From NCBI GenBank assembly GCA_964020085.1, contig CAXHUQ010000601.1, forward strand, positions 238,501-302,500: a DNA stretch of 64,000 bases. The letters run 5' to 3'. This DNA is from Micromussa lordhowensis. Its lineage: Eukaryota; Cnidaria; Anthozoa; Scleractinia; Lobophylliidae. This document shows positions 23,301-62,100 of this stretch, in pieces. Every line of letters begins with the position of its first letter. Position 1 is the stretch's first letter. Under the pieces are notes generated by a model that saw nothing but the letters and a program-made list of their open reading frames with translations, was not told the DNA's origin and did no database searches. Position numbers and translations under genes: made by a program.

Positions 23301-23329
23301 TATCTCTTAATTGGACTGCACTTCAAGTG

Positions 23330-32030: not shown

Positions 32031-32189
32031 GCATTTTCTGAAATTCTGCAAAGTTACGAGCAGGGAAAAGTCCTGCAAAAACAAGGCGAGAAAAAACACC
32101 CTAGCGCAAATGCCATCATCTCTTAATTAAAATGCACTTAAAGTGCCAACATAGCACATTATTTGGCAGCAAACCGCGGCTCCCTAAGT

Positions 32190-32640
32190 GCCCGTGACCA
32201 GGGGAAAAACCTGCAGAAAGAAGGCCAGAAAAAACACCTGGCGCAAATGCCATTATCTCCTAATTATAATGCACTTAAAGTGCCAACATAGCACAACATT
32301 TTGCAACAAACCGCGGCTCCCTAAGTGCCCATAAAGCCGAACTTTTGAAAATTTGGCAGGGACACCTTCAGCGCGCAATTTCTGAAATTCTGCAAAGTTG
32401 CAACCAGGGGACAGTCCTGCAGAAAGGAGGCCAGAAAAAACACCCTGGCGCAAATGCCATCATCTCCTAATTAAAATGCACTTAAAGTGTTAACATCGCA
32501 CAACATTTTGCAGCAAACCGCGGCTCCCTAAGTGCCCGTAAAGCCGAGCTATGGCAAATTTGGCAAGGACACCCTCAGCGCGCATTTTCTGAAATTCTGC
32601 AAAGCTGCGACCAGGGGAAAAACCTGCCGCGGTTTTTTAG
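32190..32640. repeat. Recombined monomers with two breakpoints and a small inverted insert
   Basis: At about 32,197 the sequence GTGCCCGTGACCAGGGG joins two distant points of the monomer. At 32,626-32,635 the 10-mer GCCGCGGTTT is the exact reverse complement of the satellite word AAACCGCGGC. It sits between AAAAACCT and TTTAGAATGCAC. It is the only reverse-oriented satellite piece I noticed in the window. Confidence 0.7.
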
Positions 32641-35129: not shown

Positions 35130-36150
35130 GAATGCACTTAAAGTGCCAACATAGCACAACATTTTGCAGCAAACCGCGGCTCCCTAAGTGCCGGTAAAGC
35201 CGAGCTATGGCAAATTTGGCAAGGACACCCTCAGCGCGCATTTTCTGAAATTCTGCAAAGTTGCGACCAGGGGAAAGTCTTCCAGAAAGAAGGCCAAAAA
35301 AAAAACACCCTGGCGCAAATGCCATCATCTCCTAATTAGAATAAACTTAAAGTGCCAACATAGCACAACATTTTGCAGCAAACCGCGGCTCCCTAAGTGC
35401 CGGTAAAGCCGAGCTATGGCAAATTTGGCAAGGACACCCTCAGCGCGCATTTTCTGAAATTCTGCAAAGTTGCGACCAGGGGAAAGTCTTCCAGAAAGAA
35501 GGCCATAAAAAACACCCTGGCGCAAATGCCATCATCTCCTAATTAAAATGCACATAAAGTGCTAACATAGCACAACATTTTGCAGCAAACCGCGGCTCCC
35601 TAAGTGCCCGTAAAGCCGAACTATGGCAAATTTGGCAAGGACACCCTCAGCGCGCATTTTCTGAAATTCTGCAAAGTTGCGACCAGGGAAAAGTCCTGCA
35701 AAAACAAGGCGAGAAAAAACACCCTAGCGCAAATGCCATCATCTCTTAATTAAAATGCACTTAAAGTGCCAACATAGCACAACATTTTGCAGCAAACCGC
35801 GGCTCCCTAAGTGCCCGTGAAGCCGGGCTATGGCAAATTTGGCAAGGACACCCTCAGCGCGCATTTTCTGAAATTCTGCAAAGTTGCGACCAGGGGAAAG
35901 TCCTGCAGAGAGAAGGCCAAAAAAAAAAACACCCTGGCGCAAATGGCATCATCTCCTAATTACAATGCACTTAAAGTGCCAACATAGCACAACATTTTGC
36001 AGCAAACGGCGGCTCCCTAAGTGCCGGTAAAGCCGAGCTATGGCAAATTTAGCAAGGACAACCTCAGCGCGCATTTTCTGAAATTCTGCAAAGTTGCGAA
36101 CAAGGGAAAGTCCTCCAGAAAGAAGGCCAGAAAAAACACCCTGACGCAAA
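35130..36150. repeat. Duplicated block, copy 2 (partner of 32,640-33,660)
   Basis: This is the second copy of the five-monomer block at a constant 2,490-bp offset. Related single monomers also occur near 21,435-21,720 and 22,680-22,900, so the block family has at least three generations. Confidence 0.82.
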
Positions 36151-37079
36151 TGCCATTATCTCCTTATTAGAATGCACTTGAAGTGCCAACATAGCACAAC
36201 AGTTTGCAGCAAACCGTGGCTCCCTAAGTGCCCGTAAAGCCGATGTATGGAAAATTTGGCAAAGACACCCTCAGCGCGCATTTTCTGAAATTCTGCAAAG
36301 TTGCGACCAGGGGAAAGTCCTGCAGAAAGAGGGCCAGAAAAAAAACCCTGGAGCAAATCCCATCATCTCCTAATTTAGCTGCACTTAAAGTGCCAACATA
36401 GCACAACATTTTGCAGCAAACCGCGGCCACCTAAGTGCCCGTAATGCTGAGCTATGGCAAATTTGGCAAGGACACCCTCAGCGCTTGAAGTGCCAATTAC
36501 AATGCACTTGAAGTGCCAACATAGCACAACATTGTGCAGCAAACCGCGGTTCCCTAAGTGCCCGTAAAGCCAAACTATGGCAAATTTTGCAAGCACACCC
36601 TCAGCGCGCATTTTCTGAAATTCTGCAAAGTTGCGACCAGGGGAAAGTCCTGCAGAAAGAAGGCCAGACAAAACACCCTGGCGCAAATGCCATTATCTTT
36701 TAATTACAATGAACTTGAAGTGCCAACATAGCACAACATTATGCAGGAAACCGCGGCTCCCTAAGTGCCCATAAAGCCAAACTATGGCAAATAAGGCAAG
36801 CACACCCTCAGCGCGCATTTTCTGAAATTCTGCAAAGTTGCGACCAGGGGAAAAACCTGCAGAAAAAAGGCCAGAAAAAACACCCTGGCGCAAATGCCAT
36901 TATCTCCTTATTAGAATGCACTTGAAGTGCCAACATAGCACAACATTTTGCAGCAAACCGCAGCTCCCTAAGTGCCCGTAAAGCCGAAGTATTGAAAATT
37001 TGGCAAAGACACCCTCAGCGCGCATTTTCTGAAATTCTGCAAAGTTGCGACCAGGGGAACACCCTGGAGTAAATCCCAT

Positions 37080-37985
37080 CATCTCCTAATTTGATTGCTC
37101 TTAAAGTGCCAACATAGCACAACATTTTGCAGCAAACCGAGGCTCCCAAAGTGCCCGTAAAGCCGAGCTATGGCAAATTTAGCAAGCACACCCTCAGCGC
37201 GCACTTTCTGAAATTCTGCAAAGTTGCGACCAGGGGAAAGTCCTGCAGAAAGAAGGCCACAAAAAAAACCCTGGCGCAAATGCCATCAACTCCTAATTAA
37301 AATGCACTTAAAGAGCTAACATAGCTAAACATTTTGCAGCAAACTGCGGCTCCCAAAGTGCCCGTAAGGCCAAGCTATGGCCAATTTAGCAAGCACACTC
37401 TCAGCGCGCATTTTCTGAAATTCTGCAAAGTTGCGACCAGGGGAAAGTCCTGCAGAAAGAAGACCACAAAAAACACCCTGGCGCAAATGCCATCATCTCC
37501 TTATTAAAATGCACTTAAAGTGCCAACATAGCACAACATTTTGCACAAAAAAATTCATGGCGCAAATGCCATCATCTCCTAATTAGAATGCACATAAAGT
37601 GCCAACATAGCACAACATTTTGCAGCAAACCGCGGCTCCCAAAGTGCCAATAAAGCCAAGCTATGGCACATTTAGCAAGCATTCGCGCATTTTCTGCCCG
37701 AAAAGCCGAGCCCGTGAAGCCGAGCTATGGCAAATTTAGCAAGCACACCCTCAGCGCGCATTTTCTGAAATTCTGCAAAGTTGCGACCATGGGAAAGTCC
37801 TGCAGAAAGAAGGCCACAAAAAACACCCTGACGCAAATGCCATTATCTCCTAATTCGAATGCAGTTAAAGAGCCAACATAGCACAACATAACACCCTCAG
37901 CGCGCATTTTCTGAAATTCTGCAAAGTTGAGACCAGGGGAAAGTCCTGCAGAAAGAAGGCTACCAAAACCACCCTGGTGCAAATG
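37080..37985. repeat. Left type B satellite layer, rearranged
   Basis: The monomers switch to TTTAGCAAGCACACC and GGCCACAAAAAA. Several are broken. Near 37,545 TTTTGCAC runs into AAAAAAATTCATGGCGC, near 37,680-37,712 two partial monomers are interleaved, and near 37,885 ACAACATAACACCCTCAGC skips the first part of a monomer. Small deletions are denser here than in the type A array. Confidence 0.85.
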
Positions 37986-38620
37986 CCATCATCTATTAAT
38001 TAGAATGCACTTGAAGTGCCAACATAGCACAACATTTTGCAGCAAACCGCGGCTTCCAAAGTGCCCGTAAAGCCGAGCTATGACAAATTTGGCAGGGACA
38101 CCCTTATCGCGCGTTTTCTGAAATTTTGCAAAGTTTCGACCAGGAGAAAGTCCTGCAGAAAGAAGGCCACAAAAAACACCCTGGCGCAAATGCCATCATC
38201 TCCTAATTACAATGCACTTAAAGTGCCAACATTGCACAACATTTTGCTGCAAACCGCGGCTTCCAAAGTGCCCGTAAAACCGGGCTATGGAAAATTTGGC
38301 AAGGACACCCTCAGGGCGCATTTTCTAAAATGCAGCAAAGTTGCGACCAGGGGAAAGTCTTCCGAAAAGAAGGCCACAAAAAACACCCTGAGACAAATAC
38401 CATCAAGTCCTAATTAACATGCACTTCAAGTGCCAACATAGCAGAACATTTTGCTTCAAACGCGGCACAAAAAGTGCCCGTAAAGCCGAGCTATGGCTAA
38501 TTTGGCAAGGAGACCCTCATCGCGCGTTTTCAGAAATTCTCCAAAGTTGCCATCATGCATATGCCATCATGTCCTAATTAGAATTGTCTTGAATTGCCAA
38601 CATAGCAGAACATTTTGCTG
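37986..38620. repeat. Left type C satellite layer, most diverged monomers
   Basis: Three degenerate monomers carry CATTGCACAACATTTTGCTG, CAGAACATTTTGCTTC and GGAGACCCTCATCGCGCG. The last ends at 38,620 in CATTTTGCTGCAAA, where it meets the LINE fragment. The C-type words recur only on the other side of the core (41,628-44,440). Confidence 0.85.
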
Positions 38621-39039
38621 CAAAAGAGTGCTACTTTTAATTTGAAAATATTATCAAATTTTAGGATATCCAATAACTTGTAGTAAGGCGTAGCATTCTC
38701 TCTACTGCGTGCAAAAAAAATTGAACGAATGCATTTATTTTGTTTAGTTCTGATTTTATTTAGCCTAGTTGTACAAGCACTTCCCCAACTAGTGATAGCA
38801 TAGGTCAAATAGGGATAGATGAAAGAGTAGTACAATTGTTTCAAAGTATGCAGATTTACATAGTGTCTCAATTTGGTAACAATTCCTATATTTTTTGCTA
38901 ATTTACTGTTTATATGCTTAATCTGAGGTCACCAGTGTAGGTGTTGATCAATATAGACACCCAGGTATTTTATTTGGCTTTGGATTTTGATGTCATTTAC
39001 ATTTATACTTCCACTTAACCTTGAGGATGAGACTAGGCA
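38621..39039 (-). mobile_element. Non-LTR retrotransposon fragment, copy 1 (broken RT C-terminus)
   Basis: On the minus strand this encodes the part of a LINE reverse transcriptase after the catalytic core. Recognisable words are KYLGVYIDQ, a W-x-x-x-I-K-H-I block, LKQLYYSFIYPYLTYAITSW, LNKIRTKQNKCIRSIFFA and LDILKFDNIFKLKVALF. This is typical of CR1/L2/Jockey-type elements of invertebrates (family knowledge; exact clade uncertain). The frame has a TGA nonsense codon at 38,929-38,931 where copy 2 has GGA. The 3' part of the element is missing: at 38,621 the sequence jumps into satellite through the shared word GCAAA. The left part of the frame therefore reads into satellite. Inactive. It is part of a duplicated segment shared with 40,283-40,910. 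Confidence 0.85.
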
Positions 39040-39222
39040 TTTTAGGAAATCAAAGTTAATAAAATAAAACTAAAGGTTTAATGAAAACGAATATTTAGAA
39101 AGACTTCGTTAAAGCGAAGGAATATAAATTAAGCAAACCGATGAAAGCGAAGGGTTTAGCAAAGGCAAAGCAAACGAGAAAATAAAAACAAGCCGATTAA
39201 AGCGAAGGTAACAAACTATAAT
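39040..39222. repeat. A-rich GCGAAGG-type flank, copy 1
   Basis: A purine-rich stretch contains repeated words such as AAAGCGAAGG, GCAAACCGATGAAAGCG and TTAGCAAAGGCAAAGC. It is the same sequence that follows the LINE 5' truncation point in copy 2 (40,731-40,910), but about 19 bp are missing at the junction (GACTAGGCA runs directly into TTTTAGGAAAT). No coding potential is apparent. Confidence 0.85.
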
Positions 39223-39223
39223 G

Positions 39224-39249
39224 TTCTGGTAAGTGCCAACATACCAGAA
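39224..39249. repeat. Perfect inverted repeat, 8-bp arms
   Basis: TTCTGGTA (39,224-39,231) and TACCAGAA (39,242-39,249) are exact reverse complements around a 10-nt loop AGTGCCAACA, which is itself a satellite word. It lies exactly at the right-hand junction of the duplicated LINE segment and could be a repair footprint or hairpin. Confidence 0.75.
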
Positions 39250-39443
39250 TTAATTAATTACATTACATTAATTACAATGCACTTAAAGTGCCAACATAGC
39301 ACAACATTTTGCAGCAAACCACGGCTCCCAAAGTGCCCGTAAAGCCGAGCTCTGGCAAATTTGGCAAGGACACCCTCAGCGCGCATTTTCTGAAATTCCG
39401 CAAAGTTGCGAGCAGAAAAAAGTCCTCGAAAAAGAAGGCTACA
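39250..39443. repeat. Isolated satellite monomer inside the core
   Basis: One nearly complete monomer runs from TAATTACAATGCACTTAAAG to AAAGAAGGCTACA. It is preceded by a short AATTAATTACATTACATTA stretch and cut off at the join to the Polinton-like fragment. TTTGGCAAGGACACC is type A-like, while TCCTCGAAAAAGAAGGCTACA leans to type C. It separates the two copies of the LINE segment. Confidence 0.9.
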
Positions 39444-39525
39444 GCGGTTGTCAACCGAGAAGGTCCAACGGCTTACATCGTGAACACAGATCCTCACGAT
39501 GAACCAGGCAAACATTGGATTGCGT
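39444..39525 (+). pseudogene. Polinton-like cysteine protease fragment (adenain type)
   Basis: About 26 codons contain NTDPHDEPGKHWIAL. Polinton/Maverick and adintovirus proteases of the adenovirus-protease (C5) family carry a similar NTDP...G-x-HW block, in which the histidine is catalytic; here that codon is 39,513-39,515. The piece is in frame with satellite on its left, so an open frame from 39,309 to 39,710 begins in satellite, passes through this motif and runs on. The rest of the protease, including the Asp/Glu and Cys parts of the active site, is absent. It is an old genomic remnant, not a functional enzyme. The assignment rests on one motif only. Confidence 0.55.
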
Positions 39526-39712
39526 TAAAACAACGAGGCGGTTCAGGCTACGGACCTGCTCTCGTAATAAAAAAGAGAAAACGGAGGTGGTGTTGTACCT
39601 TTAGCAGCGGCGGTCCCAGCGCTCATTGCGGTCGGAAAAGCAATGGACTTAGGTGTGGCAGGAGGTGCTGCAAGCTACGGCGGTCAAAAAGCCATGCAAG
39701 CCCTATTTAAGA
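39526..39712 (+). pseudogene. Polinton-like small Gly/Ala-rich hydrophobic protein remnant
   Basis: Immediately after the protease motif comes a Gly-rich start (RGGSGYGP), a basic run (KKRKR) and then, after a change of frame near 39,575-39,585, a hydrophobic stretch rich in Ala, Val, Gly and Leu (near 39,586-39,690) that ends in lysines. Small proteins of this build are encoded near the protease in Polinton/adintovirus-like elements (family recollection; not verifiable here). The frame change means it cannot be read as one protein. Its lysine codons (AAG repeats) merge into the GAA/TTC tail of the LINE at 39,711. Confidence 0.4.
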
Positions 39713-40710
39713 AGAAGAAGAAATCTTTTATTTGCACTGTTATATAGAATTTACATTACAGTAGGTACATTATAAAACAAAATCAAAATAAAGTAAGACT
39801 GAAATTATCGGAATTAAAATGCGAGCAGTGACCAAAGTAGCAGATGCTTCCGAGTTGGTCCCTGCCACGTTAAACTAACTGGCATAGACAATAAGCGTAA
39901 TAAAAATAGTTTTACAGAGTAAAAGTGCTAAAGTAAACAAGGATATGTGGATATACGAGTCAAAAGAAACAATACAACAGAAGAACTAAACTAAACTAAA
40001 ATCAATGTATTCTAGGAAACAGATTGCGAATTTAGCAGATAAAGCTTGCATTGTTTGGAAAAGGGGTAATAATGTAATTTTTTAGATGCAATGGAATAGT
40101 CTCCCAAATTTTCGATGCAATGAAAGTAAAAGTAGAGGCTCCATAATTATTATGTATAAGTGTCCTACGAAAGTTAAGGTTAGAGACAAATCTAGTGTAA
40201 TGGCTATGGAAGTCAGAAGCTAGAGGTAGAGTTCCAGAAAAAAATTGTTGGGATGCCTGCTGGATTGTTTATGATTTTATGAGCAAAGAGTGATACTTTT
40301 AATTTGAAAATATTATCAAATTTTAGGATATCCAGTAACTTGTAGTAAGGCGTGGCATTCTCTCTAATGTGTGCAAAAAAGGCAAAAAAAATTGAACGAA
40401 TGCATTTATTTTGTTTAGTTCTGATTTTATTTAGCCTAATTGTACAAGCACTTCCCCAACTAGTGATAGCATAGGTCAAATAGGGATAGATGAAAGAGTA
40501 ACACAATTGTTTCAAAGTATGCAGATTTACATAGTGTCTCAATTTGGTAACAATTCCTATATGTTTTGCTAATTTACTGTTTATATGCTTAATCTGAGGT
40601 CCCCAGTGTAGGTGTTGATCAATATAGACACCCAGGTATTTTATTAGGCTTTGGATTTTGATGTCATTTACATTTATACTCCCACTTAACCTTGAGGATG
40701 AGACTAGGCA
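39711..40710 (-). mobile_element. 5'-truncated LINE, copy 2 (RT C-terminus, 3' UTR, GAA/TTC tail)
   Basis: Read on the minus strand, the element begins abruptly at 40,710. Its frame is open through KYLGVYIDQ, the W-x-P-x-I-K-H-I block, LKQLCYSFIYPYLTYAITSW and FDNIFKLKVSLFAHKI. A 7-A run at 40,238-40,244 then puts it out of frame. LINE-like residues continue in another frame (TFTFIASKIWETIP, near 40,100). A second shift follows near 40,075-40,090, and the ancestral stop is probably at 40,012-40,014. The remaining 300 bp is a 3' UTR with AATAAA (complement of 39,727-39,732) and a (TTC)n tail at 39,711-39,722. Such 5' truncation and microsatellite tails are typical of CR1/L2-like insertions. 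Inactive: the catalytic core, endonuclease and ORF1 are absent. Confidence 0.88.
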
Positions 40711-40910
40711 AACAAAACTATAAGCGAATATTTAGGAAATCAAAGTTAATAAAATAAAATTAAAGGTTAATGAAAACGAATATTTAGAAAGGCTTCGTTA
40801 AAGCGAAGGAATAGAAATTAAGCAAACCGATGAAAGCGAAGGGTTTAGCAAAGGCAAAGCAAACGAGAAAATAAAAACAAACCGATTAAAGCAAAGGTTA
40901 CGAACTATAA
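40283..40910. repeat. Segmental duplication partner of 38,621-39,222
   Basis: It contains the LINE 5' truncation junction plus the adjacent A-rich flank, in the same order as in copy 1, with scattered substitutions and two length differences (a CAAAAAAGG insertion near 40,378 and about 19 bp near 40,711-40,730). Two independent LINE insertions would not share a truncation point and flank, so this is a copied segment. Confidence 0.88.
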
Positions 40911-41290
40911 GCGAAGCTTAAGCAAAGGTAAACAAACCGCGAAGCGAAGAATTAATTTAAGTTTGTAAAATAAAAACAAATCGATCGAAGCGAAGGTTAA
41001 GAGCTTTAAGTGAAGGTTTAGCAAAGGTAAACAAACCGCGAAGCGAAAAATTTATTTAAGTTTGTAAAATAAAAACAAACCCATCAAAAGCGAAGGTTAC
41101 GAACCATAAGCGAAGGTTTAGCAAAGGTAAACAAACCGCGAAGCGAAGAATTAATTTAAGTTTGTAAAATAAAAGCAAACCGCGAAGCGAAGAATTTATT
41201 TAAGTTTGTAAAATAAAAACAAACCGATCAAAGTGAAGGTTACGAACCATAAGCGAAGGTGTGGCAAAGAGTTATCTAAAAGCGAAGGAA
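40711..41290. repeat. A-rich minisatellite, 99-100 bp period
   Basis: The word AGCAAAGGTAAACAAACCGC recurs at 40,920, 41,020 and 41,120. Between these lie AAGCGAAGAATTAATTTAAG, TTTGTAAAATAAAAACAAAC and AAAGCGAAGGTTACGAACC. There are about three full units plus a short duplicated piece near 41,170-41,215, and a more degenerate part at 40,711-40,910. No gene is apparent in it. Confidence 0.85.
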
Positions 41291-41300
41291 AGACTCTTAC

Positions 41301-41459
41301 CTTGTTTCCTGATATCCTTGAAAGGTTACTTCGACGGACTTGATTCTTCTGATGATTGTAGTTTAACCCGTTGAACGCCAAATGCGCGCTAACTTCTTGA
41401 TTGTTCTTAATCAAGTTCTGCACAATGGATACTCTAGTCTGACGATCATACACCGCCCG
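41301..41459 (-). other. Possible exon remnant with 5' splice donor
   Basis: On the minus strand a frame is open from just inside the TGA at 41,460-41,462 to 41,301 (53 codons; no ATG early in it). It is followed exactly by GTAAGAG, so the join reads AACAAG then GTAAGAG, a good match to the metazoan donor consensus. The peptide is polar, rich in Asn, Gln and Arg, without a domain I recognise. The frame stays open past the donor into the minisatellite, so the coding signal is weak. It may be chance. Confidence 0.2.
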
Positions 41460-41573
41460 TCATACCAAGAGTGACGTAACAAACAAAAACCGTTACGCAG
41501 GTTAAGCTCCATGCATTCATATCAAACATCCACATGGACACCCTTGTGGGATAGATCTTTGCTGTAAGGTCAC

Positions 41574-41587
41574 GTACGCATGCGTAC
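41574..41587. repeat. 14-bp perfect palindrome
   Basis: GTACGCATGCGTAC is its own reverse complement. It lies 40 bp before the satellite resumes. It may be a protein-binding dyad or chance; nothing else in the sequence decides. Confidence 0.7.
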
Positions 41588-41627
41588 TAGATATAATCCT
41601 TCTGTAATGGGCTATATTCGTATTTTT

Positions 41628-44440
41628 GTGCCCGTAAAGCCGAGTTATGGCAAATTTGGCAAGGAAACCCTCAGCGCGCATTTTTTAAAATTCTACAAAG
41701 TTACGACCAGGAGGAAGTTCTCCAGAAAGAAGGCCACAAAAAACACCCTGGCGCAAATGCCTTCATCCGCTTATTAGAATGCGCTTGAAGTGCCAACATT
41801 GCACAACATTTTGCTGCAAACCCTGGCTCCCAAAGTGCCCGTAAAGCCAAGCTATGGCAAATTTGGCAAGGAGACCCTTATCGCGCGTTTTTTAAAATTC
41901 TGCAAAGTTGCGACCAGGGAAAGTCCTGCAAAAAGAAGGCTACGAAAAACACAATGGCGCAAATGCCATCATGTCTTACTTAGATTGTACTCAAAGTGCC
42001 AACATAACAGAACATTTTGTTGCAAACCGCGGCTCCCAAAGTGCCTGTAAAGCCGCGAGGAGACCCTCATCGCCCGTTTTCTAAAATTGTGCAAAGTTGC
42101 GACCAGGGGAAAGTCCTGCAAAAAGAAGGCCACAAAAAACACCCTGGCGCGCAAGCCATCATGTCCTAATGAAAACGCACTTAAAGTGCCAACACAGCAG
42201 ACCCTTTTGCTGCAAACGGCGGCTCACAAAGTGCCCGTAAAGCCAAGCTATGGCAAATTTGTCAAGGAGACCCCCAGCAAGCGTTTTCTGAAATTCTGCA
42301 AAGTTGCGACAAGAGGAAAGTCCTGCAAAAAGAAGGCCACAAAAAACACCCAGGCGCAAATGCTATCATCTCTTAATTAAAACGCACTTAAAGTGCTAAC
42401 ATTGCACAAGATTTTGCTGCAAACCGAGCTCACAAAGTGCCCGTAAAGCCGAGCTATGGCAAATTTGGCAAAGAGACCCTTATCGCGCGTTTTCTGAAAT
42501 TCTGCAAAGTTGCAACCAGCGGAAAGTCATCCAAAAAGAAGGCCACAAAAAACACCCTGACACAAATGCCATCATCTCCTAATTAAAATACACTTAAAGT
42601 GCCAACATCGCACAACATTTTGCTGCACACCGCGGCTCCCAAAGTGCCCGTAGAGCCGACCTATGACAAATTTGGCAAGGACACCCTCAGCGCGCATTTT
42701 TTGAAATTCTGCAAAGTCGCAACCCGGGGAAAAACGTCCAAAAAGAAGGCCACAGAAAAAAACCCTGGCGAAAATGCCATAATCTTCTAATTACAATGCG
42801 CTTGAAGTGCCAACATTGCACAACATTTTGCTGCAAACAGCGGCTCCCAAAGTGCACGTAAAGCCAAGCAATGGCAAATTTGGCAAGGACACCCTCAGCG
42901 CGCATTTTCTAAAATTCTGCAAAGTTACGACCAGGGGGAAGTCCTCCAGAAAGATGGCTACAAAAAACACCCTGGCACAAATGCCATTATCTCCTAAATA
43001 AAATGCGCTTAAAGTGCCTACATTGCACAACATTTTGCAGCAAACCGCGGCTCCCAAAGTGCCCGTAAAGCAGAGCTATGGCAAATTTGGGAAGGACACC
43101 CTCAGCCAGCATTTTCTTAAATTCTGCAAAGTTACGACCAGGGGAAAGTCCTCCAGAAAAAATGCTACGAAAAACACCCTGGCACAAATGCCATCATCTT
43201 CTAATTAAAATGCACTTTAAGTGCTAACATTGCACAACATTTTGCTGCAAACCGCTGGTCCTAAAATGCCCGTAAAGCCGAGCTCTGGCAAATTTGGCAA
43301 GGACACCCTTAGCGCGCATTTTCTGAAATTCTGCAAAGTTGCGACCAGGGGAAAGTCCTCCAGAAAGAAGGCCACCAAAAGCCCCCTGCCACAAATGCCA
43401 TCAATCGCTTATTAGAATGCACTTAAAGTGCCAACATTGCACAACATTTTGCTGCAAACTGCGGCTCCTAAAGTGCCCGTAAAGATGAGCTATGGCAAAT
43501 TTTGCAAGAACACCCTCAGCACGCATTTTCTAAAATTCAGCAAAGTTGCGACCAGGGGAAAGTCTTCCAGAAAGAAGGCCACAAAAAACATCCTGGCGCA
43601 AATGCCATCATCTCCTAATTACAATGCGCTTGAATTGCCAACATTGCACAAAATCTTCTTGCAAACTGCGGCTCCCAAAGTGCCCGAAAACCCGAGCTAT
43701 GGCAAATTTGGCAAGGACACCCTCAGCGCGCATTTTCTGAAATTCTGCAAAGTTGCGACCAGGGGAAAGTCCTCCAGAAATAAGGCCACAAAAAACACCC
43801 TAGCACAAATGCCATCATCTCTTAATTAGAGAGCACTTAAAGTGCCAACACTGCACAAGATTTTGCTGCACACCGCGGCTCCCAAAGTGCCCTTAAAGCC
43901 GAGCTATGGCAAATTTTGCAAGGACACCCGCAACGCCCATTTTCTGAAATTCTGCAAAGTTGCGACCAGGGGAACGTCCTCCAGAAATAAGGCCACAAAA
44001 AAAACCCTGGCACAAATGCCATCATCTATTAATTACAATGCACTTAAAGTGACAACATTCCACAACATTTTGCTGCAAACCGCGGCTCCTAAAGTGCCCG
44101 TAAAGCCGAGCTATGGCAAATTTGGCAAGGACACCCTCAGTGCGCATTTTCTAAAATTCTGCAAAGTTGCGACCAGGGGAAAGTCCTCCAGAAAGAAGGC
44201 CATAAAAAACACCCTGGAACAAATGCCATCATCTTCTAATTAAAATGCTTTTCAAGTCCCAACATTGCACAACATTTTGCTGCAAACCTCGGTTCATAAA
44301 GTGTCCGTAAAGCCGAGCTATGGCAAATTTGGCAAGGACACCCTCAGCGCGCGTTTTGTGAAATTCTGCCAAGTTGCGACCAGGGGAAAGTCCTCCAGAA
44401 AGAAGGCCACAAAAAACACCCTGTCAAAAACGTCATTATT
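41628..44440. repeat. Right type C satellite layer
   Basis: About 13-14 monomers resume at 41,628 in GTGCCCGTAAAGCCGAG. Marker words are CATTGCACAACATTTTGCTG, TCCTCCAGAAAGAAGGCC and GGCCACAAAAAACACC. The first four or five monomers also have GAGACCC(T/C)(T/C)ATCGCGCGTTTT and are the most diverged; one near 42,050 has lost GAGCTATGGCAAATTTGGC. The change of ACATAGCAC to ACATTGCAC removes a plus-strand TAG, so two-monomer open frames occur (43,428-43,829 and 43,842-44,243). These look incidental. Confidence 0.92.
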
Positions 44441-45029
44441 TCCTAATTAAAATGTACTTAAAGTGTCAACATAGCACAACATTTAACAGCAATCCGCGGC
44501 TCCCAAAGTGCCCGTAAAGCCGAGCTATTGCAAATTTAGCAAGCACAACCTCAGCGCGCATTTTCTGAAATTCTGCAAAGTTGCCACAAAGGAAAGTCCT
44601 GCAGAAAGAACGCCACAAAAAACACACTGACGCAAATGCTATCATCTCCTAATTAGAAGGCCCTTAAAGTGCAAACATAGCACAACATTATGCAGCAAAC
44701 CGCGGCTCCCAAAGTGCCCGTAAAGCTGAGCTATGGCCAATTTAGCAACGCGCATTTTCGGAAATTCTGCAAAGTTGCGACCAGGGGAAAGTCATGCAGA
44801 AAGAAGGCCACAAAATCACCCTGGCGCAAATGCCATCATCCCCTAATTAAAATGCACTTGAAGTTCTAACATAGCACAACATTTTGCAGGAAACCGGGGC
44901 TCCCAAAGTGCCTGTAAAGCCGAGCTATGGCAAGTTTAGCAAGCACACCCTCAGCGCGCATTTTCTGAAATTCTGCAAAGTTGCGACCAGGGGAAAGTCC
45001 TGCAGAAAGAAAACCACAAAAAGCACTCT

Positions 45030-45660
45030 GGCGCAAATGCCATCATCTCTTAATTACAATGCACTTAAAGTTCCAACATAGCGCAACATTTTGCAGCAAA
45101 CCGCGGCTCCCAAACTGCCCGTAAAGCCGAGCTATGGTAAATTTAGCAAGCACACCCTCAGCGCGCATTTTCTGAAATTCTGCAAAGTTGCGACCAGGGT
45201 AAAGTCCTGCAGAAAGAAGGCCACAAAAAACACCCTCGCACAAATGCCATCACCTACAAATTAAAATGCACTTAAAGTGCTAACATAGCACAAAATTTTG
45301 CAGCAAACCGCGGCTCCCAAAGTGCCCGTAAAGTTGAGCTATGACAAATTTAGCAAGCACACCCTCAGCGCGCATTTTCTGAAATTCTGCAAAGTTGCGA
45401 TCAGGGGAAAGTGCTGCAGAAAGAAGGCCACAAAAAAAACCCTGGCGCAAATGCTATCATCTCCTATATTAAATGCACTCTAAGTGCCAACATAGCACAA
45501 CATTTTGCAGCATACCACTGCTTCCAAAGTTCCCGTAAAGCCGAGCTATGGCAAATTTAGCAAGCACACCCTCAGCGCGCATTTTCTGAAATTCTGCAAA
45601 GTTGCGACCAGGGTAAAGTCCTGCAGAAAGAAAACCACAAAAAGCACTCTGGCGCAAATG
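45030..45660. repeat. Type B higher-order block, copy 1
   Basis: It matches 47,498-48,120 at offset 2,468. Private forms are CATCACCTACAAATTAAAATG, GTAAAGTTGAGCTATG, GCGATCAGGGGAAAGTGCTG, CTCCTATATTAAATGC and GCATACCACTGCTTCC. Confidence 0.85.
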
Positions 45661-47497
45661 TCATCATCTCGTAATTAGAATGCCCTTGAAGTGCTAACAT
45701 AGCACAACATTTTGAAGCAATCCGCGTCCCCCAAAGTGCCCGTAAAGCCGAGCTATGGCAAATTTAGCAAGCACACCCTCGGCGCGCATTTTCTAAAATT
45801 CTGCAAAGATGCGACCGGGGGAAAGTCCTGCAGAAAGAAGGCCACAAAAAACACCCTGGCGCAAGTGCCATCATCTCCTAATTAGAATGCACTTCAAGTG
45901 CCAGCATAGCACAACATTTTGCAGCAAACAGTGGCTCCCAAAGTGCCCGTAAAGCCAAGCTATGGCAAATTTAGCAAGCAAACCCTCAGCGCGCATTTTC
46001 TGAAAGTCTGCAAAGTTGCCACCAGGGCAAAGTCCTGCAGAAGGTAACAAAAAACACCCTGGCGCAAAAGCCATCATCTTCTAAATAAAATGCACTTGAA
46101 GTGCCTGCATAGCCCAACATTTTGCAGCAAACCGCGGCTCCCAAAGTGCCCGTAAAGCCGAGCTATGGCAAATTTAGCAAGCACACCCTCAGCGCGCATT
46201 TTCTGAAATGCTGCAAAGTTGCAACCAGGGGAAAGTCCTGCAGAAAGAAGGCCTCAAAAAACGTTCTGCCGCAAAAGCCATTATCTCCTAATTAGCATGC
46301 ACTTCAAGTGCCAACATAGCACAACATTTTGCAGCAAACTGCGGCTCCCAAAGTGCCCGTGAAGCCGAGCTATGGCAAATTTAGCAAGCACACCCTCAGC
46401 GCGCATTTTCTGAAATTCTGCAAAGTTGCGACCAGGGAAAAGTCCTTCAGAAAGAGGGCCACAAAAAACACCCTGGCTCAAATGCAATCATGTCCTATTT
46501 AGAATGCACTTGAAGGGCCAACATAGCACAACATTTTGCAGCAGACCACGGCTCCTAAAGTGCCCGTAAAGCCGAGCTATGGCAAATTTAGCAACGCGCA
46601 TTTTCTAAAATTCTGCAAAGTTGCGACCAGGGGAAAGTCCTGTAGAAAGAAGGCCACAAAATCACCCTGGCGAAAATGCCATTATCTCCTAATTAAAATG
46701 CACTTGAAGTGCCAACATCGCACAACATTTTGCAGCAAACCGCGGCTCCCAAAGTGCCCGTAAAGCCGAGCTATGGCAAATTTAGCATGCACACCCTCAG
46801 CGCGCATTTTCTAAAATTCTGCAAAGTTGCGACCAGGGGAAAGTCCTGCAGAAAGAAGGCCACAAAAAACCACTCTGGAGCAAATGCCATCATCTTCTAA
46901 TTTCAATGCACTTGAAGTGCCAACATAGCACAACATTTTGCAGCAATCCGCGGCTCCCAAAGTGCCCGTAAAGCCAAGCTATGGCAAATTTAGCAAGCAA
47001 ACCCTCGGCGCGTATTTTCTAAAATTCTGCAAAGTTGCGACAAGGGGAAAGTGCTGCAGAAAGAAGGCCACAAAAAACACCCTGGAGCAAAAGCAATTAT
47101 CTCCTAATAAGAATGCACTTAAAGTGCCAACATATCACAACATTTTGCAGCAAACCACGGCTCCCAAAGTGCCAGTAAAGCCGAGCTATGTGAAATTTAG
47201 CACGCACACCCTCAGCGCGCATTTTCAGAAATTATGCAAAGTTGCGACCAGGGGAAAGTCCTGCAGAAAGAAGGCCACGAAAAAAAACCCTGTCGCAAAT
47301 GCCATCATCTCCTAAATAAAATGCACTTAAAGTTCTAACATAGCACAACATTTTCAGCAAACCGCGGCTCCCAAAGTGCCCGCAAAGCCGAGCTATGGCA
47401 ATATTATCAAGAACACCCTCAGCCCGCATTTTCTGAAATTCTGCAAAGTTGGGACAAGGGGAAAGTGCTGCAGAAAGAAGGCCACATAAAACACCCT

Positions 47498-48545
47498 GGC
47501 GCAAATGCCATCATCTCTTAATTACAATGCACTTAAAGTTCCAACATAGCGCAACATTTTGCAGCAAACCGCGGCTCCCAAACTGCCCGTAAAGCCGAGC
47601 TATGGCAAATTTAGCAAGCACACCCTCAGCGCGCATTTTCTGAAATTCTGCAAAGTTGCGACCAGGGTAAAGTCCTGCAGAAAGAAGGCCACAAAAAACA
47701 CCCTCGCGCAAATGCCATCACCTACAAATTAAAATGCACTTAAAGTGCTAACATAGCACAAAATTTTGCAGCAAACCGCGGCTCCCAAAGTGCCCGTAAA
47801 GTTGAGCTATGACAAATTTAGCAAGCACACCCTCAGCGCGCATTTTCTGAAATTCTGCAAAGTTGCGATCAGGGGAAAGTGCTGCAGAAAGAAGGCCACA
47901 AAAAAACCCTGGCGCAAATGCTATCATCTCCTATATTAAATGCACTTTAAGTGCCAACATAGCACAACATTTTGCAGCATACCACTGCTTCCAAAGTTCC
48001 CGTAAAGCCGAGCTATGGCAAATTTAGCAAGCACACCCTCAGCGCGCATTTTCTGAAATTCTGCAAAGTTGCGACCAGGGTAAAGTCCTGCAGAAAGAAG
48101 GCCACAAAAAACACCCTCGCGCAAATGCCATCACCTACAAATTAAAATGCACTTAAAGTGCTAACATAGCACAAAATTTTGCAGCAAACCGCGGCTCCCA
48201 AAGTGCCCGTAAAGTTGAGCTATGGCAAATTTAGCAAGCACACCCTCAGCGCGCATTTTCTGAAATTCTGCAAAGTTGCGATCAGGGGAAAGTGCTGCAG
48301 AAAGAAGGCCACAAAAAAAACCCTGGCGCAAATGCTATCATCTACTATATTAAATGCACTCTAAGTGCCAACATAGCACAACATTTTGCAGCATACCACT
48401 GCTTCCAAAGTTCCCGTAAAGCCGAGCTATGGCAAATTTAGCAAGCACACCCTCAGCGCGCATTTTCTGAAATTCTGCAAAGTTGCGACCAGGGGAAAGT
48501 CCTGCAGAAAGAAGGCCACAAAAAAAACACCCTCGCGCAAATGTC
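47498..48545. repeat. Type B higher-order block, copies 2 and 3 (413-bp dimer)
   Basis: The marker dimer found at 45,240-45,660 occurs here twice in tandem, near 47,710-48,120 and 48,122-48,540. It carries GTAAAGTTGAGCTATG followed by GCATACCACTGCTTCC. The dimer unit is about 413 bp. Confidence 0.85.
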
Positions 48546-51500
48546 ATCGTCTCCTTATTAGAATGCACTTAAAGTGCCAACATAGTACAACATTTTGCAG
48601 CAAACCGCGGCTCCCAAAGTGCCCGTAAAGCCGAGCTATGGGAAATTTAGCAAGCACACCCTCAGCGCGCATTTTCTGAAATTCTGCAAAGTTGCAACCA
48701 GGGGAAAGTCTTGCAGAAAGAAGGCCACAAAAAACACCCTGGCGCAAACGCCATCATCTCCTAATTTGCTTGCACTTGAAGTGCTAACATAGCACAACAT
48801 TTTGCAGCAAACCGCGGCTTCCAAAGTGTCCATAAAGCCGAGCTATGGCAAATTTATCAAGAACACCCTCAGCGCGCATTTTCTGATATTCTGCAAAGTT
48901 GCGACAAGGGGAAAGTGCTGCTGAAAGAAGGCCACAAAAAACACCCTGGAGCAAATGCAATTATCTCCTAATTAAAATGCACTTGAAGTTCTAACATAGC
49001 ACAACATTTTGCAGCAAACCGCGGCTCCCAAAGTGCCCGTAAAGCCGAGCTATGGCAAATTTAGCAAGCACACCCTCAGCGCGCATTTTCTGAAATTCTG
49101 CAAAGTTGCGACCAGGGGAAAGTCCTGCAGAAAGAAGGCCACAAAAAACACCCTGGCGCAAATGCCATCACCTACAAATTAAAATGCACTTAAAGTGCCA
49201 ACATGGCACAAAATTTTGCAGCAAACCGCGGCTCCCAAAGTGCCAGTAAAGCCAAGCTATGGCAAATTTAGCAAGCACACCCTCAGCGCGCATTTTCTGA
49301 AATTCTGCAAACTTGCGATTAGGGGAAAGTGCTGCAGAAAGAAGGCCACATAAAACACCCTGGCGCAAATGCCATCATGTCTTAATTAAACTGCACTTGA
49401 AGTGCCAACATAGCACAACATTTTGCAGCAAACCGCGGCTCCCAAAGTGCCCGTAAAGCCGAGCTATGGGAAATTTAGCACGCACACCCTCAGCGCGCAT
49501 TTTCTGAAATTCTGCGAAGTTGCGACCAGGGAAAAGTCCTGCAGAAAGAAGGCCACAGAAAACACCCTGGCGCAAATGCCATCATCTCCTAATTAAAATG
49601 CACTTAAAGTGCCAACATAGCACAACATTTTGCAGCAAACCGCGGCTCCAAAAGTGCCAGTAAAGCCAAGCTATGGCAAATTTAGCAAGCACACCCTCAG
49701 CGCGCATTTTCTGAAATTCTGCAAAGTTGCGACCAGGGGAACGTCCTGCAGAAAGAAGGCCACAAAAAACACCCGGGCGCAAATGCCATCACCTACAAAT
49801 TAAAATGCACTTGAAGTGCCAACATAGCACAAAATTTTGCAGCAAACCGCGGCTCCCAAAGTGCCAGTAAAGCCAAGCTATGGCAAATTTAGCAAGCACA
49901 CCCTCAGCGCGCATTTTCTGAAATTCTGCAAAGTTGCGACCAGGGGAACGTCCTGCAGAAAGAAGGCCACAAAAAACACCCTGTCGGCAATGCCATCATC
50001 TCGTAATTAAAATGCACTTGAAATGCCGACATAGCACAACATTTTGCAATAAACCGCGGCTCCCAAAGTGCCCGTAAAGCCAAGCAAAGGCAAATTTAGC
50101 AAGCCCACCCTCAGCGCGCATTTTCTGAAATTCTGCAAAGTTGCGACCAAGGGAAACTCCTGCAGAAAGAAGGGCACAAAAAACAACCTGGCGCAAATGC
50201 CATCATCTCTTAATTAGAAAGCGCTTGAAGTGCCAACATAGCACAACATTTTGCAGCAAACCGCGGCTCCCAAAGTGCTCGTAAAGCCGAGCTATGTTAA
50301 ATTTAGCAAGCACACCCTCAGCGTGCATTTTCTGAAATTCTGCAAAGTTGCGACCAGGGGAAAGTCCTGCAGAAAGAAGGCTAAAAAAACAGCCTGGCGC
50401 AAATGTCATCATCTCGCAATTAAAATGCACTTGAAGTGCCAACATAGCACAACATTTTGCAGCAAACCGCGGCTCCCTAAGTGCCCGTAAAGCCGAGCTA
50501 TGGCAAATTTGGCAAGGACACCCTCAGCGCGCATTTTCTGAAATTCTGCGAAGTCGCGACCAGGGGAAAGTCCTGCAGAAAGAAGGCCAAAAAAAAACAC
50601 CCTGGCGCAAATGTCATTATCTCCTAATTAGAATGCACTTAAAGTGCCAACATAGCACAACATTTTGCAGCAAACCGCGGCTCCCTAAGTGCCCGTAAAG
50701 CCGAGCTATGGGAAATTTGGCAAGGACACCCTCAGCGTGCATTTTCTGAAATTCTGCAAAGTGTGCGACCAGGGGGAAGTCTTGCAGAAAGAAGGCCACA
50801 AAAAACACCTTGGCGCAAATGCCATCATCTCCTAATTAGAATGCACTTTAAGTGCCAACATAGCACAACATTTTGCAGCAAACCGAGGCTCCCTAAGTGC
50901 CCGTAAAGCCGAGGTATGGCAAATTTGGCAAGGACACCCTCAGCGCGCATTTTCTAAAATTCTGCAAAGTTGCGACAAGGGAAAAAACCTGCAGAAAGAA
51001 GGCAGAAAAAACAGCCTGGCGCAAATGCCATTATTTCCTAATTAAACTGCACTTGAACTGCCAACATAGAACAACATTTTGCAGCAAACCGCGGCTCCCT
51101 AAGTGCCCGTAAAGCCAAGCCATGGCAAATTTGGCAACGACACCCTCAGCGCGCATTTTCTGAAATTCTGCAAAGTTGCGACCAGGGAAAAAACCTGCAG
51201 AAACAAGGCCAGAAAAAGCACCCTGGCGCAAACGCCATTTTCTCCTAATTAAAATGCACTTAAAGTACCAACATAGCACAACATTTTGCAGCAAACCGCG
51301 GCTCTCTAAGTGCCCGTAAAGCCGAGCTATGGCAAATTTGGCAAGGACAGCCTTAGCGCGCATTTTCTAAAATTCCGCAAAGTTGCGACCAGGGGAAAGT
51401 CCTGCAGAAAAAAGGCCAGAAAAAACACCCTGGCGCAAATGCATTATCTCTTAATTAAACTGCACTTAAAACGCCAACATAGCACAACATTTTGCAGCAA

Positions 51501-52679
51501 ACCGCGGCTCCCTAAGTGCCCGTAAAGCCAAGCTATGGCAAATTTGGCAAGGACACTCTCAGCGCGCATTTTCTGAAATTCTGCAAAGTTGCGACCAGGG
51601 GAAAAACCTGCAGAAAGAAGGCCAAAAAAAACACCCTGGCGCAAATGCCATGATCTCTTAATTAGAATGCACTTCAAGTGCCAACATAGCACAACATTTT
51701 GCAGCAAACCGCGGCTCCCAAAGTGCCCGTTAAGCCGAGCTATGGCAAATTTGGCAAGGACACCCTCAGCAAGCATTTTCTGAAATTATGCAAAGTTGCG
51801 TCCACGGGAAAGTCCTGCAGAAAGAAGGCCAGAAAAAACACCCTGGCGCAAACGCCATCATCTCCTAAGTAAAATGCACTTCAAGTGCCAACATAGCACA
51901 ACATTTTGCAGCAAACCGCGGCTCCCTAAGTGCCCGTAAAGCCGAGCTATGGCAAATTTGGCAAGGACACCCTCAGCGCGCATTTTCTAAAATTCTGCAA
52001 AGTTGCGACCAGGGGAAAAACCTGCAGAAAGAAGGCCAGAAAAAACACCCTGGCGAAAATGCCATTATCTCCTAATTAGAATGCACTTAAAGTGCCAACA
52101 TAGCACAACATTTTGCAGCAAACCGCGGCTCCCTAAGTGCCCTTAAAGCCGAGCTATGGCAAATTTGCCAAGGACAACGTCAGCGCGCATTTTCTGAAAT
52201 TCTGCAAAGTTGCGACCAGGGGAAAAACCTGCAGAAAGAAGTCCGGAAAAAATACCCTGGCGCAAATGCCATTATCTCTTAATTAAAATGCGCTTAAAGT
52301 GCCAACATAGCACAACATTTTGCAGCAAACCGCGGCTCCCAAAGTGCCCGTAAAGCCGAGGTATGGCAAATTTGGCAAGGACACCCTTAGCGCGCATTTT
52401 CTGAAATTCTGTAAAGTTGCGACCAGGGGAAAAACCTGCAGAAAAAAGGCCAGAAAAAACACCCTGGCGCAAATTCCATTATCTTCTAATTAAAATGCAC
52501 TTAAAGTACCAATATAGGACAACATTTTGCAGCAAACCGCGGCTCCCAAAGTGCCCGTAAAGCCGAGCTATGGCAAATTTGGCAAGGACACCCTCAGCGC
52601 GCATTTTCTTAAATTCTGCAAAGTTTTGACCAAGGGGAAGTCCTGCAGAAAGAAGGCCAGAAAAAACACCCTGGCGCAA

Positions 52680-54130
52680 ATGCCATCATCTGCTAATTAA
52701 AATGCACTTGAAGGGTTAACATAGCACAACATTTTGCAGCAAACCGCGGCTCCCTAAGTGCCCGTAAAGCCGAGCTTTGGCAAATTTGGCAAGGACACCC
52801 TCAGCAGGCACTTTCTGAAATTCTGCAAAGTTGCGACCAGGGGAAAGTCCTGCAGAAAGAAGCCCAGAAGAAACACCCTGGCGCAAATGCCATCATCTCT
52901 TAATTAAAATGCCCTTAAAGTGCCAACATAGCACAACATTTTGCAGCAAACCGCGGCTCCCTAAGTGCCCGTAAAGCCGAGCTATGGCAAATTTGGCAAG
53001 GACACCCTCAGCTCGCATTTTCTGAAATTCTGCAAAGTTGCGACCAGGGGAAAGTCCTGCAGATAGAAGGCCAGAAAAAACACCCTGGCGCAAATGTCAT
53101 TATGTCCTAATTAGAATGCACTTAAAGTGCCAACATAGCACAACATTTTGCAGCAAACTGCGGCCCCCAAACTGCCCGTAAAGCCGAGCTATGGCAAATT
53201 TGGCAAGGACACCCTCAGCGTGCATTTTCTGAAATTTTTCAAAGTTGCGACCAGGGGAAAGTCCTGCAGAAAGAAGGCCAGAAAAAACACCCTGGCGCCA
53301 ATGCCATTATCTCTTAATTAAAATGCACTTAAAATGCCAACATAGCACAACATTTTGCAGCAAACCGCGGCTCCCTAAGTGCCCGTAAAGCCGAGCTATG
53401 GCAAATTTGGCAAGGACACTCTCAGCGCGCATTTTCTGAAATTCTGCAAAGTTGCGACCAGGGGAAAAATCTGCAGAAAGAAGGCCAGAAAGAACACCCT
53501 GGCGCAAATGCCATTATCTCCTAATTAAAATGCGCTTAAAGTGCCAACATAGCACAACATTTTGCAGCAAACCGCGGCTCCCAAAGTGCCCGTTAAGCCG
53601 AGCTATGGCAAATTTGGCAAGGACACCCTCAGCGCGCATTTTCTAAAATTATGCAAAGTTGCGTCCACGGGAAAGTCCTGCAGAAAGAAGGCAAGAAAAA
53701 ACACCCTGGCGCAAATGCCATCATCTGCTAATTAAAATGCACTTGAAGGGTTAACATAGCACAACATTTTGCAGCAAACCGCGGCTCCCTAAGTGCCCGT
53801 AAAGCCGAGCTTTGGCAAATTTGGCAAGGACACCCTCAGCAGGCACTTTCTGAAATTCTGCAAAGTTGCGACCAGGGGAAAGTCCTGCAGAAAGAAGGCC
53901 AGAAGAAACACCCTGGCGCAAATGCCATCATCTCTTAATTAAAATGCCCTTAAAGTGCCAACATAGCACAACATTTTGCAGCAAACCGCGGCTCCCTAAG
54001 TGCCCGTAAAGCCGAGCTATGGCAAATTTGGCAAGGACACCCTCAGCTCGCATTTTCTGAAATTCTGCAAAGTTGCGTCCACGGGAAAGTCCTGCAGAAA
54101 GAAGGCCAGAAAAAACACCCTGGCGCAAAC
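52680..54130. repeat. Five-monomer repeat, 1,035-bp offset
   Basis: The stretch beginning CATCTGCTAATTAAAATGC with GAAGGGTTAACATAGC at 52,686 recurs at about 53,720. The following monomer (TTAAAGTGCC with CAGCTCGCATTTTC) also recurs, at 52,893 and 53,928. The offset is 1,035 bp. Confidence 0.82.
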
Positions 54131-62039: not shown

Positions 62040-62100
62040 ACCTGCAGAAAGAAGGCCAGAAAAAACACAACATTTTGCAGCAAACCGCGGCTCCCAAAGT
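62040..62100. repeat. Monomer fusion with internal deletion
   Basis: AGAAAAAACACAACATTTTG joins the A-run of one monomer to the CACAACATTTTG of the next. The normal CCTGGCGCAAATGCC to CATAGC stretch is lost. The word CACA(AC) is shared by both sides and is likely the microhomology used. Confidence 0.75.

What the first reader, a model, noticed from the sequence alone, without database searches (positions are those of the whole stretch)
37080..50400. Satellite layers mirror each other around the 3-kb core
Seen: going outward from the core, both sides show type C, then type B, then type A, with all monomers in the same orientation. This is therefore not an inverted duplication. The layer widths are unequal (B is about 0.9 kb on the left and about 6 kb on the right). 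Inference: older variants survive next to the unique insert, where unequal exchange is less effective, while younger variants expand outside. This resembles the layered-expansion picture of alpha-satellite arrays but is centred on a transposon graveyard.
Basis: partly seen in the sequence, partly recalled or inferred. Interest (0 to 1): 0.75.

Follow-up and report, generated by a model that had tools for sequence, protein, structure and literature searches.

The report
Fossil layers inside a satellite array
A long run of a 207-base DNA repeat keeps its oldest-looking versions next to a small patch of transposon debris and its newer versions further out on both sides, so the array seems to preserve a readable record of how one repeat version replaced another.

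Summary
The window is one 207-bp satellite, 306 of 306 detected monomers or pieces on the + strand, around a 3,003-bp core (38625-41627). An ML tree and an unsupervised clustering both recover position-specific groups in the order A-B-C-core-C-B-A, with left and right monomers mixed inside groups. B is 909 bp left and 5,971 bp right, as stated.

Relatives on other contigs polarise two sites well: they carry the C state at column 59 and the B/C state at column 76. B's own two changes look derived. Column 188 is mixed, and columns 44 and 173 do not favour C. On balance the innermost layer is least changed and A most derived: the reverse of primate alpha-satellite layering.

A monomers across the core are no more different than same-side ones at equal distance; a small B relic sits in A without an insert; a duplication inside the core (3.3% diverged) is younger than C divergence (14%). 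Best reading: successive homogenisation sweeps bypassed a cold island where transposon debris then accumulated. Species, centromere status and assembly accuracy could not be tested.

The parts
1..37073 (+). Layer A, left: 184 monomers or pieces, actively homogenised
   Evidence: 128 of 181 scored monomers have a partner at 97% identity or more
37074..37982 (+). Layer B, left (909 bp, 7 pieces, deletion-scarred)
   Evidence: 109A+115C in 4 of 4 typed; truncated pieces 6 of 10 in left B+C against 3 of 42 in right C+B
37983..38624 (+). Layer C, left (4 pieces); last piece stops at model column 64
38625..41627 (.). Core, 3,003 bp of non-satellite debris with one satellite monomer inside
38623..39221 (-). 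Copy 1 of a duplicated segment holding a non-LTR retrotransposon reverse-transcriptase end (one in-frame stop) plus the start of the 99-bp repeat
   Evidence: 20 mismatches in 598 aligned bases against copy 2
39268..39442 (+). Lone satellite monomer inside the core (columns 14-187); A-like in the tree, C-like in the clustering
39443..39710 (+). Fragment resembling an adenovirus/Polinton-type protease, with a short hydrophobic stretch in another frame; open in frame with the satellite monomer before it
   Evidence: Peptidase_C5 E=0.075, below the curated cut-off; Polinton label recalled
39711..40731 (-). 3' end of a non-LTR retrotransposon (172-aa open end of the reverse transcriptase, then an untranslated tail)
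   Evidence: 263 homologous proteins, 6 of the 120 listed with precomputed PF00078; no Pfam hit above cut-off for the fragment itself; tail read by eye
40285..40910 (-). Copy 2 of the duplicated segment
40868..41293 (.). 99-bp tandem repeat (about 3 units plus degenerate copies)
41294..41627 (.). Unassigned unique sequence
   Evidence: no Rfam match near threshold, no Pfam match for the one open frame tried (41199-41459, - strand)
41628..44431 (+). Layer C, right (14 monomers; C1-type at 41757-42564, C2-type for the rest, split monomer 41628 included); resumes at model column 79
44432..50402 (+). Layer B, right (5,971 bp, 29 monomers; a few recent internal duplications)
50403..64000 (+). Layer A, right; consensus identical to left A
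   Evidence: 0 differences in 207 columns
16132..16908 (+). Small B-like relic patch inside layer A, no insert
   Evidence: 3 of 4 monomers carry 76A,109A,115C,188C; the fourth is truncated, untyped at columns 76-117, and has 188C

Best explanation
This is a fossil island inside a living satellite array. The array was once made of C-like monomers. Newer versions (B, then A) spread through the array by unequal exchange or conversion, and each failed to penetrate one cold spot, leaving a ring of the older version on each side. The array outside still turns over by duplicating blocks of several monomers. Transposon debris lodged in the cold spot and was not removed; once there, the heterology may have helped keep exchange low close by. 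Shown: the layers, their shared identity left and right, the lack of recent copies in C, relatives with the C state at column 59 and the B/C state at 76, no divergence penalty across the core for A. Inferred: the sweeps, the order of insertion and freezing, and any reinforcing role of the core.
For: Position-ordered groups shared left and right. Within-layer divergence falls outward: C 0.14-0.15, B 0.097-0.098, A 0.080-0.085, and C-C is about as large as C-A (0.134-0.142). Partners at 97% identity or more: C 0 of 17, B 8 of 33, A 169 of 247. Contigs ranked by similarity over non-diagnostic positions only: in the 29 least similar of 37 contigs the residue over column 59 is Q (the C state) in 81 monomers against 4 L, and Q is the commonest or tied state in all 29. 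Over column 76, F (the B/C state) 86 against 14 L on the 31 contigs called far. In the other reading frame, column 59 has the C state 31 times and the A state 3 times, and B's column-115 state (H) is not among the six commonest. Exchange in A is local and recent: best block matches are shifted mostly 8, 10 and 20 monomers; best blocks across the core (0.948) match those across a core-free control split (0.943). The left C piece stops at column 64 and the right one resumes at 79, as if one monomer was split with about 14 bp lost. Passages of Shepelev et al. 2009 (PMC2729386) say that alpha-satellite layers become available for transposons when homogenisation stops.
Against: Not all sites agree. 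Column 188 is mixed in relatives (C state 55 against 14 S and 11 F in one frame; C state 14 against 23 R and 10 K in the other). At column 44 relatives have the A/B state, and at 173 both occur or mostly the A/B state (35 against 8), so C has derived changes too. Two of the 8 most similar contigs also carry Q at column 59. The rooted amino-acid tree is weak (4 of 108 inner branches starred). C monomers are further from the C consensus than A monomers are (0.082 against 0.067), so rates are not strictly equal. Within single layers on the right, the rise of identity to the consensus with distance from the core is not significant (C p=0.10, B p=0.11, A none). What first made the spot cold is unexplained.
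Confidence: 0.6

Rival explanations
1. The insert is the cause: core sequence landed in a C-type array and blocked unequal exchange beside it, so C and then B survived next to it while A took over outside (the first reader's reading; the 'segment cut off' scenario in Shepelev et al. 2009 is a relative).
For: The most diverged monomers abut the core. Identity to the consensus rises with distance on the right (Spearman 0.67 over 109 monomers) and best-partner identity rises with distance on the left within 12 kb (0.72 over 57). One monomer seems to have been split in register.
Against: A is not differentiated across the core at matched distance. Blocking of spanning tracts alone reproduced the excess age in 0 of 24 simulated arrays, with 90% suppression in 4 of 24; a shorter first run gave 2 of 24 with and 1 of 24 without a core at the same settings. 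A B relic without insert exists at 16.1-16.9 kb. The only datable event in the core is younger than C divergence (0.033 against 0.14).
Confidence: 0.25
2. Inside-out growth, as in alpha satellite: B expanded inside A and C inside B, then the centre went quiet, took transposons and decayed. C would be the last to arise and the first to freeze.
For: Nested same-orientation patches follow directly from local expansion. B and C share 76A and 188C against most A monomers. Relatives have the A/B state at column 44, so part of C's signature is derived; column 188 is not clearly polarised.
Against: C lacks B's own changes 109A and 115C (0 of 16). Relatives carry the C state at column 59 and the B/C state at 76. 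C-C divergence is not clearly smaller than C-A.
Confidence: 0.1
3. Assembly artefact: reads from different arrays joined at the core, or haplotypes collapsed.
For: Satellite arrays are prone to misassembly.
Against: The same B and C variants lie in the right order on both sides, in one orientation, with a nearly in-register split monomer. A chimeric join would not predict this.
Confidence: 0.05

Closest known systems
Layered alpha-satellite pericentromeres of primates (Shepelev et al. 2009, PMC2729386; passages seen)
   Same: Discrete, chronologically ordered monomer layers placed partly symmetrically on both sides of a centre; older layers no longer homogenise and hold transposons.
   Different: Age order is reversed: there the youngest and most homogeneous repeats are central; here the oldest-looking and most diverged are central. 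Scale is about 13 kb. No evidence of centromere function.
Divergent monomers at the ends of satellite arrays (edge effect; recalled, e.g. McAllister and Werren 1999, nothing seen)
   Same: Monomers next to non-repeat DNA are old, diverged and not recently exchanged.
   Different: Here both edges face a small internal island, the same two older variants are ordered on both sides, and A is not differentiated across the island.
Transposon islands inside satellite arrays (Drosophila centromere islands, Arabidopsis ATHILA insertions; recalled, not read)
   Same: Nested transposon fragments embedded in satellite.
   Different: The finding is the ring order of satellite variants around the debris, not the debris itself. 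No chromatin data.

Membership tests
Layered-expansion satellite structure (alpha-satellite type) | Discrete monomer clades in the same order on both sides of a centre, same orientation | tested here: met
   (C1 group weakly supported)
Layered-expansion satellite structure (alpha-satellite type) | Youngest, most homogeneous repeats at the centre, oldest outside | tested here: not met
   least homogeneous at the centre; ancestral states there at columns 59 and 76
Layered-expansion satellite structure (alpha-satellite type) | Centre is or was a functional centromere | not testable with these tools
   no chromatin or cytology
Array-edge effect beside non-homologous DNA | Divergence rises and recent exchange falls towards the non-repeat DNA | tested here: met
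   a step between layers, not significant within single layers on the right
Array-edge effect beside non-homologous DNA | The non-repeat DNA limits exchange between the two sides | tested here: not met
   matched-distance comparison, control split
Non-LTR retrotransposon (fragment in the core) | Reverse-transcriptase homology | tested here: met
   263 homologues, 6 of the 120 listed with PF00078; the fragment itself has no Pfam hit above cut-off
Polinton / adenovirus-type protease (fragment in the core) | Peptidase_C5 match above curated cut-off | tested here: inconclusive
   E=0.075 and 0.14, 13.2 and 12.3 bits against a cut-off of 21.3

The most novel reading that the evidence does not exclude
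Satellite arrays can keep an inside-old stratigraphy: array-wide replacement sweeps each stop a little further from a cold internal island, so rings of successive repeat generations stand around it on both sides, and the island exists before and independently of the transposons that mark it. Such islands would be internal archives of past sweeps in otherwise homogenised arrays.
Probability: 0.35. Interest if true: 0.65.

Novelty: new variant of a known kind. Interest (0 to 1): 0.48.

Why it matters
How new satellite variants replace old ones is usually invisible, because homogenisation erases the history. A ring-ordered relic inside an active array would let the order of replacement, the reach of exchange and the timing of transposon entry be read from one locus. 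It also separates two claims that are often merged: that inserts block exchange, and that inserts accumulate where exchange has already stopped. The evidence here leans to the second.

Tried and rejected
Inverted duplication: rejected, 306 of 306 monomers on one strand. The core as an absolute barrier: rejected by the matched-distance test. CpG decay as the sole cause of C divergence: not favoured; non-CpG classes rise about 1.6-fold from A to C (transitions 0.0252 to 0.0392, transversions 0.0228 to 0.0379), though CpG transitions rise more (0.0271 to 0.0766), so it may contribute. A protein-coding satellite: not favoured; open frames are short and the consensus has stop codons in the frames printed. 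An rRNA or tRNA piece in the core: the one Rfam match was far below its threshold, and ARAGORN found no tRNA in the window. Clock-type rooting: of the 14 best root positions 13 fall on C tips or small C groups (10 of them C1) and one on an A row; the measure favours long tips, so it is not relied on. First simulation: excess age of 1.6 or more in 2 of 24 with and 1 of 24 without a core at the main setting, and 0-1 of 24 in the other settings; run length was not checked for coalescence, so it was repeated longer, where the 99%-suppression setting still left 65% of pairs uncoalesced. DNA relatives: an exact 22-base satellite word found nothing in genome contigs or viral contigs; an 18-base word gave 6 matches in bacterial records, one per record, taken as chance, and none in viral contigs. 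The retrotransposon fragment had no relative in viral contigs. Literature: ten searches, several with capped listings, listed no paper recognisable from title and start of abstract as describing inside-old layering; one search found none at all. Only the matching passages shown of PMC2729386, PMC12400953 and PMC4857426 were seen.

Full report
WHAT IS THERE. The window is an almost unbroken array of a 207-bp satellite. A profile built from 274 near-full monomers finds 306 monomers or pieces, all on the + strand. One interruption of 3,003 bp, 38625-41627, contains a single further monomer at 39268-39442. The species is unknown to me. The window's own proteins are listed with a contig of 297,815 bases. 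The retrotransposon and the satellite suggest a eukaryote (inference).

THE LAYERS. Comparing core-proximal, intermediate and distal monomers picks out 16 of 207 columns that change with position. Columns 109 and 115 mark B (A and C instead of G and G): 4 of 4 typed left B and 25 of 27 right B, 0 of 16 typed C, the core monomer not, 4 of 181 left A and 0 of 66 right A. Column 59 marks C (T): 3 of 4 left and 12 of 13 right C, 0 of 33 B, 0 of 246 A, and not the core monomer.

TREE AND CLUSTERING. An ML tree of 132 of the 306 monomers (pieces under 120 columns left out, so 4 of 7 left B and 3 of 4 left C pieces are in; distant A monomers thinned to about every fifth) gives B as one clade (29 of 29 right, 4 of 4 left, plus A monomer 16132; 96/88), C2 as one clade (left 38190 plus 10 right C; 97/89), A as one clade (51 of 52 left, 29 of 29 right, plus the core monomer; 83/88) and C1 (left 37983 and 38398 plus right 41757, 41963, 42155, 42360) as a weak group (85/34). 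The bootstrap had not fully settled and the root in that tree is only a midpoint. Average-linkage clustering of 298 monomers on 47 columns with shared variants, without position information, gives at 3 groups a C block of 17 (38190, 38398, the core monomer and all 14 right C), and at 8 groups a B block of 35 (4 left, 29 right, plus 16496 and 16703), with C by then split into groups of 5, 10, 1 and 1. The core monomer is A-like in the tree and C-like in the clustering, so its type is open.

AGE. Mean divergence is 0.085 and 0.080 within left and right A, 0.097 and 0.098 within left and right B, 0.152 and 0.141 within left and right C; left to right it is 0.085 for A, 0.102 for B, 0.152 for C; C to A is 0.134-0.142. 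So C monomers are about as far from each other as from A. A partner at 97% identity or more exists for 0 of 17 C, 8 of 33 B and 169 of 247 A monomers scored. The most diverged run of 14 monomers (0.106) begins at 38398; 2,000 order shuffles never exceeded 0.081. On the right, identity to the consensus rises with distance over 109 monomers (Spearman 0.67), but within C (p=0.10), B (p=0.11) and A (none) alone the trend is not significant; on the left over all 188 monomers it is not significant either (0.10, p=0.17), while best-partner identity within 12 kb is (0.72, 57 monomers). The pattern is steps more than a slope.

WHICH STATE IS OLD. Two protein searches with satellite reading frames found 118 and 39 proteins; at least 3 of the 118 are the window's own. 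These frames are not proposed as genes; they only make satellite relatives findable. Read monomer by monomer, the - strand frame shows several diagnostic columns as residues. On 31 contigs first called far (110 monomers), column 59 reads Q (the C state) 86 times against 4 L; column 76 reads F (B and C state) 86 against 14 L; column 188 reads C (B and C state) 55 against 14 S and 11 F; column 44 reads L (A and B state) 85 against 4 Q; column 173 reads A 46 and G 35. Window A reads L 242 at column 59, L 161 and F 79 at 76, S 190, F 31 and C 20 at 188. I had sorted near from far after seeing the states. removes that circularity: contigs ranked by similarity over non-diagnostic positions alone show 81 Q against 4 L at column 59 in the 29 least similar of 37 contigs, Q being the commonest or tied state in all 29; of the 8 most similar contigs, 6 (the window's own among them) have L and 2 have Q. 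The 39 + strand-frame relatives (71 monomers) agree at column 59 (31 with the C state, 3 with the A state, 17 with a third state) and do not list B's state at column 115 among the six commonest, but at column 188 they lean to the A-like G (23 R, 10 K, 14 T) and at 173 to the A/B state (35 C against 8 S). So columns 59 and 76 make C older; B's changes are its own; column 188 is undecided; at 44 and probably 173 C is itself derived. A quick amino-acid tree of 111 rows rooted on one far row puts five C1 monomers outside A, B and C2, among far rows, at support 82-88, with 4 of 108 inner branches starred; with 69 columns it is weak.

IS THE CORE A BARRIER? For A monomers at 12-20 kb distance, mean divergence is 0.0860 on the same side (4,087 pairs) and 0.0858 across the core (525); at 20-30 kb 0.0868 (2,796) and 0.0868 (2,606); at 30-40 kb 0.0893 (590) and 0.0861 (3,245). 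The left and right A consensus are identical. Recent exchange is local: the best match of a four-monomer block reaches 1.000 within left A and 0.977 within right A, 0.948 across the core, and 0.943 between two parts of left A kept 3 kb apart, so the core adds nothing to distance. A simple simulation in which the insert only vetoes tracts that span it gave inner/outer age of 1.6 or more in 0 of 24 runs; without a core 0 of 24; with 90% suppression within 10 monomers 4 of 24; with 99% within 15 monomers 2 of 24, though 65% of pairs were then uncoalesced. A shorter earlier run gave 2 of 24 with and 1 of 24 without a core. It is a toy and says only that geometry alone is weak.

WHAT THE CORE IS. 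It holds two copies of a segment of about 600 bp (38623-39221 and 40285-40910; 20 mismatches in 598 bases, 3.3%, 95% interval 2.1-5.1%). The segment carries the end of a non-LTR retrotransposon reverse transcriptase on the - strand (263 homologues, best 92% identical) and the start of a 99-bp repeat. Between the copies lie the lone satellite monomer and a fragment with a sub-threshold match to the adenovirus endoprotease family (E=0.075), which I take, from recall, as Polinton-like. 41294-41627 is unassigned. None of the non-satellite core recurs elsewhere in the window at E 0.001. The left satellite stops at column 64 and the right resumes at column 79, as if one monomer had been split and about 14 bp lost; a register this close would arise by chance perhaps one time in seven (my estimate), so this is mild support. 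The duplication is much younger than the 14% C divergence, unless conversion between the copies reset it or rates differ. It dates a late event in the core, not the first insertion.

ISLANDS WITHOUT INSERTS. At 16132-16908, inside A, three of four monomers carry the full B signature, and none of the four has a partner above 93.2%. The monomer calls leave gaps of at most 3 bp there. So a relic can survive without an insert.

ASYMMETRY. Left B+C has lost pieces: 6 of 10 pieces are shorter than 200 columns against 3 of 42 on the right (Fisher p=0.0007) and 26 of 250 in A; pieces cut by the core edge or by the window's ends were left out. Deletions on the left would explain the unequal widths (inference).

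MECHANISM. I favour a cold island that successive array-wide replacements failed to enter, with transposon debris accumulating there afterwards and perhaps reinforcing it. Shepelev et al. 2009 state for alpha satellite that layers become available for transposons when homogenisation stops, and also discuss long insertions cutting segments off (passages). The data lean to the first order of events but do not settle it. The main open points are what made the spot cold and whether the assembly is right.

NOVELTY. Old monomers beside non-repeat DNA, and symmetric layers, are each known. The combination found here (ordered older variants on both sides of an internal island, age order reversed relative to alpha satellite, no divergence penalty across the island) I did not recognise in the titles and abstract beginnings listed by the ten searches named under Tried and rejected. 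I rate it a new variant of a known kind.

Noticed in passing
16132-16908: A three-monomer B-type relic (plus one truncated monomer) inside layer A with no insert; its members have no close partner in the window.
   Followed up: partly
1-6000, 12000-20000, 26000-32000: Layer A contains exact repeats of 400 bp and more, up to at least 828 bp in the first 6 kb; best block matches in left A are shifted mostly by 8, 10, 20, 53 or 57 monomers.
   Followed up: partly
53983-59826: Right A carries three similar junctions with a truncated monomer (54190, 57047, 59284), pointing to duplication of blocks of 2.2-2.9 kb.
   Followed up: no
37074-38560: Left B+C is unusually rich in truncated monomers (6 of 10), which may account for its thinness.
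   Followed up: yes
38623-39221 and 40285-40910: Direct duplication of a retrotransposon-plus-99-bp-repeat segment inside the core; both left junctions share a short GCAAA stretch, which may be microhomology (by eye).
   Followed up: partly
39300-39710: The lone core satellite monomer runs in frame into the protease-like fragment, giving a fused open frame of 136 codons, probably by chance.
   Followed up: no
whole window: The monomer is 207 bp, a multiple of three, so frames run through it on both strands; predicted-protein collections hold many such satellite 'proteins', a likely source of false gene calls.
   Followed up: partly
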